Part shown: positions 32,772 to 35,153 of the stretch, piece by piece
Position numbering within the stretch: position 1 is the first letter of the stretch
Layout: every line of letters starts with the position of its first letter
Assembly (NCBI GenBank): GCA_026392465.1
Contig: JAPLCA010000013.1
Span: 1 to 64,000, forward strand
Direction: 5' to 3'
Source of the DNA: Propionibacteriales bacterium
Lineage (GTDB): Bacteria > Actinomycetota > Actinomycetes > Propionibacteriales > Nocardioidaceae
Length of the DNA stretch: 64,000 nt
Notes under the pieces: model-generated
What the model saw: the letters and a program-made list of their open reading frames with translations, nothing else
The model's database searches: none
What the model was told of the DNA's origin: nothing
Translations under genes and position numbers: made by a program

Positions 32772-32843
32772 CCCCGCCCGGAGCGTCCGCGGCCTGTGCA
32801 CGACGGGCTTCGGCGTGTCGGAGTCTGTTCGTACGGTTCACGG

Positions 32844-33284
32844 GTGGACGACGACACCTTCGCGATCCGGTTGGCCGACGGCCGACCACTCCCTCTGCGG
32901 CCGTCGGAGCTGCCAGTCCTCACTCATTCCGACGAGATCCACCTGGTCTCCGGGGATCCGAACAACGAGGACGCGGGTGGTCACGCGTGGGGCGTCGGTC
33001 GGCGGGACAAGACCGAGTTTCCGCAACGGTGGGGGACCGACCTGCGCCCCTGGGTCGAGAAGGTCATGCGACATCCGGACGGCGTCGTCCTCTCGGACGG
33101 CGGCGACCGCCTTGGGTTCACCGCCACGGTCGACGACGTGCGTGTCGTGGTCCGTCTGCGCCGCGACGAGACCGGCCGATGGCGGTTCTCCACGGCGTTC
33201 CCGGTCGGCGGGCGCGGAGTCGTCAAGAACACGCGGCATGGTCGTGTGGACGTTCCCCTGGATGACCAGCGCATCGATGGCTAG
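32844..33284 (+). CDS. EndoU-like nuclease domain protein
   Basis: EIHLVSGDPNNEDAGGHAWGVGRRDKTEFPQRWGTD ... WRFSTAFPVGGRGVVKN resembles the bacterial EndoU signature (HIL.GD, GGH..G.G..GKTEFP..W, T.YP); GTG start. Confidence 0.75.
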   Translation: MDDDTFAIRLADGRPLPLRPSELPVLTHSDEIHLVSGDPNNEDAGGHAWGVGRRDKTEFPQRWGTDLRPWVEKVMRHPDGVVLSDGGDRLGFTATVDDVRVVVRLRRDETGRWRFSTAFPVGGRGVVKNTRHGRVDVPLDDQRIDG

Positions 33285-33293
33285 CCTGGACAG

Positions 33294-33566
33294 ATGACCG
33301 ACGTCGACGAGCTGCTCTCGATCCTGGGCCCGGCCGTGCGGCCGTTCCTCGGGCGCGACGACTCACTCACGATCGACGACCTCGTCGTCGGGGGTGAGAA
33401 GCTCGAGGCGGTCGCGATCCTCGCGCGTGCCGCGTCCCGCCACCGAGCACCCATCGCCGCCGAGTCGCTCGAGCGCCTGCAACGTCTGGCCGACGGCCTG
33501 CCGCCCGACCGGCTGGGTGACGTCGCTGCGACTCGTGACGCGCTGCACCAGCTCGTCCCGGCCTGA
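33294..33566 (+). CDS. Small helical protein, candidate immunity protein for the upstream EndoU
   Basis: 90 aa, 9 nt after the EndoU-like stop codon: MTDVDELLSILGPAVRPFLGRDDSLTIDDLVVGGEKLEAVAIL. Confidence 0.5.
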   Translation: MTDVDELLSILGPAVRPFLGRDDSLTIDDLVVGGEKLEAVAILARAASRHRAPIAAESLERLQRLADGLPPDRLGDVAATRDALHQLVPA

Positions 33567-33567
33567 G

Positions 33568-34419: not shown

Positions 34420-34568
34420 GCCGACACTGTCGCACGGGCGAGGTGCGGCCCACCGCCGTCACCGCTGCGAGACGTTCGCACCGACGTCGCAGCAGGTTCG
34501 CAGTGCCGAGGAACAGGCTCGTGGAGCGACGGCTCGACCCGCGAGCCCCTGGACGGCAGGAGCACCTC

Positions 34569-35153
34569 ATGAACCGACGATCAGCACTCACCTCGACCCT
34601 GGCAGCGATCGCCCTCTGTGCCGGCACCGCCGTGTCCAGCACGGCCGGAACGGCGGGAGCAGCCGAGTCCTCGGCGACTGCGGCGGGAGCGTCGACCGCC
34701 GCCGCCGAACGACCCGCGCTCGAGGTCCCGTTCCCCTGCGGTCAGGAGTGGCGCGGCGAGACCCGGAAGAACCACGACCCGCTGAACGCCATCGACTTCA
34801 ACCTGCCGTCCGGTGGAGACAGCGACCTCGGCAAGCCGGTCCAGGCCAGCAACGGCGGTGTCGTCACCTTCGCGGGCACGGGGCCCGACGGCTACGGCAA
34901 GATGGTCGACGTCTACCACGCGAACGGGTGGTCCACCCGCTACGCGCACCTCAGCGTCATCTCCGTCGTGAAGGGTCAGAAGATCCTGGCGACCCATGGC
35001 ATCGGCCGGGTCGGCAAGACCGGGGGCAGCTTCCCCGCTCACCTGCACTACGAGCAGCGCTACAACGACACCGCCGCCGGGATCTACTTCAAGAACACGA
35101 AGGCGAAGTACTGGGGCGAGCAGATGTACGTCCGCACGACGATGTGCAGCTGA
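34569..35153 (+). CDS. M23 family metallopeptidase, secreted
   Basis: Signal peptide MNRRSALTSTLAAIALCAG; NAIDFNLP, GKMVDVYHANGWSTRYAHLS, VGKTGGSFPAHLHYEQ. Confidence 0.85.
   Translation: MNRRSALTSTLAAIALCAGTAVSSTAGTAGAAESSATAAGASTAAAERPALEVPFPCGQEWRGETRKNHDPLNAIDFNLPSGGDSDLGKPVQASNGGVVTFAGTGPDGYGKMVDVYHANGWSTRYAHLSVISVVKGQKILATHGIGRVGKTGGSFPAHLHYEQRYNDTAAGIYFKNTKAKYWGEQMYVRTTMCS

What the first reader, a model, noticed from the sequence alone, without database searches (positions are those of the whole stretch)
32844..33566. Compact EndoU-like nuclease with an adjacent candidate immunity gene, directly after dnaB
Seen: 146-aa protein with IHLVSGD...GGHAWGVGRRDKTEFPQRW...STAFP, followed 9 nt later by a 90-aa helical ORF. 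Known: bacterial EndoU domains (PF14436-type) are usually C-terminal warheads of large polymorphic toxins (CdiA, LXG, WXG proteins), with the immunity gene next door. Here only about 30 residues precede the nuclease domain and there is no secretion signal or delivery domain. Inference: a stand-alone toxin/antitoxin-like pair or an intracellular RNase; both putative catalytic His positions look preserved.
Basis: partly seen in the sequence, partly recalled or inferred. Interest (0 to 1): 0.7.

Follow-up and report, generated by a model that had tools for sequence, protein, structure and literature searches.

The report
Stand-alone EndoU toxin-immunity gene pair
Two adjacent bacterial genes look like an RNA-cutting toxin and its antidote, the kind normally attached to large delivered weapons (including proteins inside virus capsids), here living alone as a small self-contained unit with a separate predicted on-switch for each gene, in a way that seems to have arisen several times.

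Summary
32844-33284 encodes a 146-aa EndoU-like nuclease, and 9 nt later 33294-33566 encodes a 90-aa all-helical protein. The curated EndoU model (PF14436) misses the window protein. A profile built from 32 relatives without it finds it at E=2.5e-22, and both catalytic-type histidines (H33, H47) are kept. The best match is to warheads of phage-capsid MuF toxins (83 bits) rather than to secreted Hint/RHS warheads (35 bits).

Both genes start exactly 6 nt after a TANNNT -10 box, the signature of leaderless actinobacterial genes. The antidote's promoter overlaps the toxin's stop codon. The pair is under purifying selection (dN/dS about 0.22 and 0.10-0.16). It sits as a clean ~785-bp insert between dnaB and a MOSC gene; a related species has the empty site. 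No delivery domain or polymorphic-toxin gene is apparent near it.

Stand-alone EndoU pairs occur in other actinobacteria and arose at least three times; two lineages group with MuF phage toxins. I read the pair as a toxin-antitoxin-like chromosomal module, probably a liberated warhead-immunity cassette. RNase activity, neutralisation and biological role are inferred, not shown. It is a new variant of a known kind.

The parts
32832..32837 (+). TACGGT, predicted -10 box of a leaderless toxin transcript (6 nt before the GTG)
   Evidence: TANNNT-N6-GTG; TANNNT kept in the sister species (TACCGT). 21 of 23 TANNNT-N6/7-RTG sites in the window open an ORF of 60 aa or more
32844..33284 (+). Stand-alone EndoU-like nuclease (146 aa), predicted RNase toxin
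   Evidence: Independent EndoU profile E=2.5e-22; AF2 model pLDDT 89.8; dN/dS about 0.22
32868..32915 (+). N-terminal segment RLADGRPLPLRPSELP shared with other stand-alone EndoU proteins; these share it with MuF-toxin linkers
   Evidence: Shuffle test p=0.001 against Nocardioides-group stand-alone proteins; those against MuF linkers p=0.001; window directly against MuF linkers only p=0.01-0.05 at best
32919..33257 (+). EndoU nuclease domain (residues 26-138)
   Evidence: Profile alignment
32940..32942 (+). His33, first catalytic-type His (H in HIL.GD)
   Evidence: Conserved column in A5 and A6
32982..32984 (+). His47, second catalytic-type His (GGH)
   Evidence: Invariant in A5 and A8, nearly invariant in A6
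33282..33287 (+). TAGCCT, predicted -10 box of the antidote gene, overlapping the toxin stop codon
   Evidence: Conserved in the sister species. Equivalent boxes before immunity genes of stand-alone and MuF EndoU loci, absent from 12 secreted-type loci
33294..33566 (+). Candidate immunity/antitoxin protein (90 aa, five predicted helices), distantly MafI-like
   Evidence: BLASTP E=9e-4 to the MafI-family gene next to the genome's other EndoU; AF2 pLDDT 84.7; dN/dS 0.10-0.16
32783..33567 (.). Inserted segment (about 785 bp, left edge approximate) between dnaB and the convergent MOSC gene
   Evidence: A related species (G007) has dnaB and MOSC about 11 bp apart at this site with nothing else between them

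Best explanation
A two-gene, self-contained toxin-antitoxin-like module. The 146-aa protein is an EndoU-type metal-independent RNase that stays in the cytoplasm and would cleave cellular RNA (tRNA or mRNA, target unknown). The 90-aa helical protein binds and blocks it. Each gene is transcribed as its own leaderless mRNA, so antidote is made even when the toxin is not. The unit is a liberated warhead-plus-immunity cassette. The nuclease resembles phage MuF-capsid toxin warheads more than secreted ones, and an immunity promoter inside the toxin's 3' end is a feature found in MuF EndoU loci. Shown: homology, selection, clean insertion, promoter architecture as sequence, no linked delivery gene. 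Inferred: RNase activity, neutralisation, intracellular role, MuF origin of this particular copy.
For: EndoU identity without circularity, E=2.5e-22, with MuF-only profile 83 bits against secreted-only 35 bits. Both His kept. Both genes TANNNT-N6-start, the spacing reported for leaderless bacterial genes (PMC3160421); in M. tuberculosis leaderless mRNAs predominate among toxin-antitoxin pairs, 32 of 37 (PMC3898074). Immunity -10 box in 14 of about 20 stand-alone or MuF lineages against 0 of 12 secreted-type loci, Fisher p=1e-4; background at stops of long frames 3.6%. Purifying selection on both genes. Empty site. No delivery domain in the toxin, and no second EndoU, phage-like or large toxin-like ORF recognised elsewhere in the 64-kb oriC-proximal core region. 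Similar compact pairs in the Nocardioides group and others; at least three changes on the tree, with the Nocardioides-group copies sister to MuF L045 (99/98). EndoU neutralisation by a downstream MafI is experimentally known for MafB (PMC4287609).
Against: PF14436 does not match the protein directly. The window's branch in the tree is long and unresolved, so its MuF origin is not shown. P0002 does not match the MafI model and profile comparison is weak (probability 4%, E 0.0095). Fold searches gave no significant PDB match. P0002 has no recognised DNA-binding domain, unlike classical type II antitoxins. Patchy distribution (2 of 49 Aeromicrobium). Window neighbours were inspected by ORF, and only some were scanned with HMMs.
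Confidence: 0.6

Rival explanations
1. Orphan warhead cassette: a displaced tip of a polymorphic toxin, kept as a reservoir for recombination, with the immunity gene protecting against relatives' weapons.
For: Stand-alone toxin-immunity cassettes are known beside polymorphic toxins (PMC3482391). The same genome carries a second, Hint-EndoU-MafI cassette on contig 17 whose upstream frame shows no recognisable RHS part.
Against: No polymorphic toxin gene recognised in the 64-kb window. Own start codon and predicted promoter. Purifying selection on the nuclease itself. Recurrent, independently placed compact pairs.
Confidence: 0.15
2. Anti-toxin shield: the antidote is the selected part, protecting against incoming MuF phage or competitor EndoU toxins; the toxin gene is along for the ride or addicts the cell to the shield.
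For: In the Nocardioides group the antidote is more constrained (dN/dS 0.03-0.06) than the toxin (0.15-0.19), and one genome has a broken toxin frame with the antidote ORF intact. Predicted separate promoter for the antidote.
Against: The toxin is also under purifying selection in both lineages. No phage toxin closer than about 41% identity was found in the phage or IMG/VR collections.
Confidence: 0.15
3. Secreted or cargo effector: the compact EndoU is delivered by an unlinked machine (for example type VII) and acts on other cells.
For: One compact relative (G858) lies between rplM-rpsI and an FtsK/SpoIIIE-type ATPase with an EspC-like gene nearby, resembling an ESX-4 locus.
Against: No signal peptide or WXG/LXG/EspC-like delivery domain recognised in the window protein; flanks are dnaB and MOSC; other stand-alone copies sit by xerC/tsf-type and UDG/GntR genes.
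Confidence: 0.07

Closest known systems
MuF polymorphic toxins of temperate phages, EndoU subtype (e.g. Gordonia phage Ewald gp7-gp8, Bifidobacterium phage Bbif-1)
   Same: EndoU warhead (Ewald 41%, Bbif-1 30% identity; MuF-only profile 83 bits), small downstream immunity ORF, in Ewald and Dogfish a TAGCAT-N7-ATG box overlapping the toxin end
   Different: No MuF/head-maturation domain, not in a prophage, own toxin promoter, 146 aa instead of 400-500
MafB(MGI-1)-MafI of Neisseria (EndoU with downstream immunity)
   Same: EndoU domain followed by a small immunity gene; the genome's contig-17 EndoU neighbour is a MafI-family protein distantly similar to P0002
   Different: MafB is large and secreted; P0002 is below the MafI model's reach
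Hint/RHS-EndoU toxins (own genome contig 17; L016, L024)
   Same: Same nuclease core and gene order
   Different: Large delivered proteins; immunity gene abuts or overlaps the toxin stop with no TANNNT box (0 of 12 secreted-type loci)
Type II toxin-antitoxin modules with BECR-fold RNases (RelE/HigB class)
   Same: Small cytosolic RNase-type toxin plus protein antidote, leaderless genes as in M. tuberculosis TA pairs
   Different: EndoU rather than RelE sequence family; antidote lacks a known DNA-binding domain; separate promoters

Membership tests
Bacterial EndoU nuclease (PF14436) | Match to the curated PF14436 model | tested here: not met
   No match for the window protein at E<=10; genome search finds only the contig-17 copy; yet 29 of 34 aligned relatives do match
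Bacterial EndoU nuclease (PF14436) | Homology to established EndoU domains | tested here: met
   Profile built without window sequences: E=2.5e-22
Bacterial EndoU nuclease (PF14436) | Two catalytic histidines | tested here: met
   H33 and H47 in conserved columns
Bacterial EndoU nuclease (PF14436) | Third catalytic residue (Lys, or S/T in strand 4) | tested here: inconclusive
   K56 nearly invariant and T117 in the STAFP strand, but the S/T column varies in MuF members; equivalence to the CdiA-CT STEC_O31 triad not tested
Bacterial EndoU nuclease (PF14436) | RNase activity | not testable with these tools
   Needs protein
MafI immunity family (NF033691) | Match to the NF033691 model | tested here: not met
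   P0002 no match
MafI immunity family (NF033691) | Distant sequence similarity to members | tested here: inconclusive
   BLASTP E=9e-4; hhalign E=0.0095, probability 4%
MuF polymorphic toxin | N-terminal MuF / head-maturation domain | tested here: not met
   Only about 25 residues precede the nuclease; no phage gene recognised in the window
MuF polymorphic toxin | EndoU warhead of the MuF subtype | tested here: inconclusive
   MuF-only profile 83 bits against 35 for secreted-only, but the tree position is unresolved
Type II toxin-antitoxin module | Small non-delivered toxin with adjacent small protein gene | tested here: met
   Gene anatomy and neighbourhood
Type II toxin-antitoxin module | Antitoxin with DNA-binding, autoregulating domain | tested here: not met
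   No Pfam or NCBIfam domain in P0002
Type II toxin-antitoxin module | Antidote neutralises the toxin | not testable with these tools
   Needs co-expression
Known anti-phage defence system (PADLOC) | Match to a defence-protein model | tested here: not met
   No match

The most novel reading that the evidence does not exclude
Phage capsid-delivered (MuF) EndoU warheads and their self-promoted immunity genes are repeatedly captured by actinobacterial chromosomes as leaderless toxin-antitoxin modules, which then act inside the cell, for example aborting infection by, or giving immunity to, phages carrying related MuF toxins.
Probability: 0.3. Interest if true: 0.75.

Novelty: new variant of a known kind. 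Interest (0 to 1): 0.5.

Why it matters
It gives a concrete path by which delivered weapons become intracellular toxin-antitoxin systems. It also offers a cheap sequence test: an independent promoter for the immunity gene separates MuF and stand-alone EndoU loci from secreted-type loci, which fits the need of a lysogen to be immune while the late-expressed toxin gene is silent. I did not find this in the papers searched, though the library is incomplete.

Tried and rejected
P0002 hits in two other Aeromicrobium genomes (L009, L010) are shadow-frame matches antisense to an oxidoreductase gene and were dropped. No plasmid match. PDB and viral fold searches gave nothing decisive. No tRNA in the window and no Rfam family near the site, so no sign of tRNA-site insertion. 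No flanking repeats that would mark a transposon. My first dnaB query was read out of frame; it still located dnaB, and later calls used the right frame. L121 and L128 were not stand-alone pairs of this kind on inspection. Viral-contig searches with the Nocardioides-group stand-alone and L045 proteins found nothing.

Full report
WHAT IS THERE. At 32844-33284 a 146-aa ORF starts with GTG and carries IHLVSGD, GGHAWGVGRRDKTEFPQRW and STAFP; 9 nt after its stop a 90-aa ORF begins (33294-33566). The window is a core, oriC-proximal chromosomal stretch: ORF starts look like recF, rnpA, yidC, rsmG, parB, trxB, ssb, rplI and dnaB (by reading, not by HMM). The genome appears to be Aeromicrobium: its close relative in the named collection is Aeromicrobium sp. 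CnD17-E.

ARE THEY GENES. The pair is present with 91% protein identity in one other Aeromicrobium at the same place. dN/dS is about 0.22 for the nuclease and 0.10-0.16 for the small protein; dnaB gives 0.056. Only 2 of 49 genomes of the genus carry the nuclease. Two further hits of the small protein are antisense shadows.

IS IT EndoU. Pfam PF14436 does not match directly. Iterated searches link it to the contig-17 EndoU of the same genome, a Nocardia polymorphic toxin, Gordonia and Bifidobacterium phage MuF proteins, and many actinobacterial toxins. 29 of 34 aligned relatives match PF14436. A profile from 32 relatives with the window and its sister left out finds this ORF among 557 window frames at E=2.5e-22; a MuF-only profile gives 83 bits and a secreted-type-only profile 35 bits. 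H33 and H47 occupy the two His columns; K56 and T117 are candidate third residues. The AF2 model is confident (pLDDT 89.8), but fold search returned only weak matches, among them a BECR-fold CDI toxin (6cp9, E about 0.5).

THE SMALL PROTEIN. It is modelled as five helices. It has no Pfam, NCBIfam or PADLOC match. It resembles the protein encoded next to the genome's contig-17 EndoU, which is a clear MafI-family member (E=1.5e-13), at BLASTP E=9e-4; profile comparison is weak. Position, size and this similarity make immunity the best reading.

PROMOTERS. The toxin reads TACGGT-tcacgg-GTG and the antidote TAGCCT-ggacag-ATG, the latter -10 box overlapping the toxin's TAG stop. TANNNT-N6/7-RTG occurs 23 times on both strands of the window, and 21 of these open ORFs of 60 aa or more. 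First T about 12 nt before the start codon is the reported signature of leaderless bacterial genes (PMC3160421); in M. tuberculosis 32 of 37 toxin-antitoxin pairs with a primary start site are leaderless (PMC3898074). Across relatives, a TANNNT-N6/7-ATG box before the immunity gene is found in all stand-alone lineages and most actinobacterial MuF loci, and in none of 12 secreted-type (Hint/RHS/other) loci. My lineage count of 14 of about 20 against 0 of 12 gives p=1e-4; the grouping of near-duplicates was done by hand. The background at the ends of long frames is 3.6%. Phage Dogfish shows the same TAGCAT-N7-ATG as Ewald.

INSERTION. In G007 the dnaB stop and MOSC stop lie about 11 bp apart; in the window and G027 a segment of about 785 bp with only the two genes and their promoters lies between them, without flanking repeats. 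G027 and G007 are the closer pair by dnaB and MOSC, so either G007 lost the segment or it moved by recombination.

RELATIVES THAT ALSO STAND ALONE. Three genomes of another genus in the family (called the Nocardioides group here; genus g18, name inferred, not given by the tool) carry a 117-aa EndoU plus 87-aa partner. In them the partner is under stronger constraint (dN/dS 0.03-0.06) than the nuclease (0.15-0.19). A fourth genome has a broken nuclease frame and an intact partner. G445 and G858 have further compact pairs; G858's lies beside a secretion-ATPase locus and so is less clearly solitary. The N-terminal DGxxxPxRPS segment of the window protein matches the Nocardioides-group proteins (p=0.001), and theirs matches MuF linkers (p=0.001); the window directly against MuF linkers reaches only p=0.01-0.05 at best. 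The tree needs at least three changes for stand-alone EndoU; the Nocardioides group is sister to MuF L045 (99/98), and G445/G858 group with MuF L026 (91/89). The window branch is long and unplaced.

HOW IT WORKS (COMMITTED READING). Inference: a cytosolic EndoU RNase held in check by a directly binding helical antidote that has its own leaderless promoter; loss or dilution of antidote frees the nuclease. Direct binding and neutralisation are established for the EndoU toxin MafB and its MafI (PMC4287609), and EndoU is a known MuF warhead (PMC5576092). Stand-alone cassettes are known but usually accompany polymorphic toxins (PMC3482391). The biological role (phage defence, stabilisation, or shield against delivered toxins) is open.

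LIMITS. No experiment. Genome surveys were samples. The secreted/MuF labels rest on HMM hits for the main loci and on context for the rest. Catalytic geometry was not measured.

Noticed in passing
L142:7378-8436 and the gene after it (own genome, contig 17): A second EndoU in the same genome: Hint-EndoU with a MafI-family immunity gene, the upstream frame showing no recognisable RHS or delivery part, so it looks like a displaced toxin tip.
   Followed up: partly
L111 / G318 contig 17: Nocardioides-group stand-alone EndoU with a broken frame while the partner gene stays intact with its TAGCAT-N7-ATG box.
   Followed up: partly
L020, L137, L026, L028, L030, L037, L040, L042, L043, L045, L060: Immunity genes of MuF EndoU phage toxins carry a leaderless-type promoter at the toxin's 3' end, a possible general rule for lysogen immunity.
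   Followed up: partly
L141:1683-9979 (G858): A compact EndoU pair sits between rplM-rpsI and an FtsK/SpoIIIE ATPase, with an EspC-like gene nearby, resembling an ESX-4 locus; possible type VII effector.
   Followed up: no
L124, L135 (G681 contig 17): Two EndoU-like matches in one open frame reported as 19,630 codons, extraordinarily long.
   Followed up: no
window 34443-35153: A predicted exported M23 peptidase gene lies just beyond the MOSC gene.
   Followed up: no
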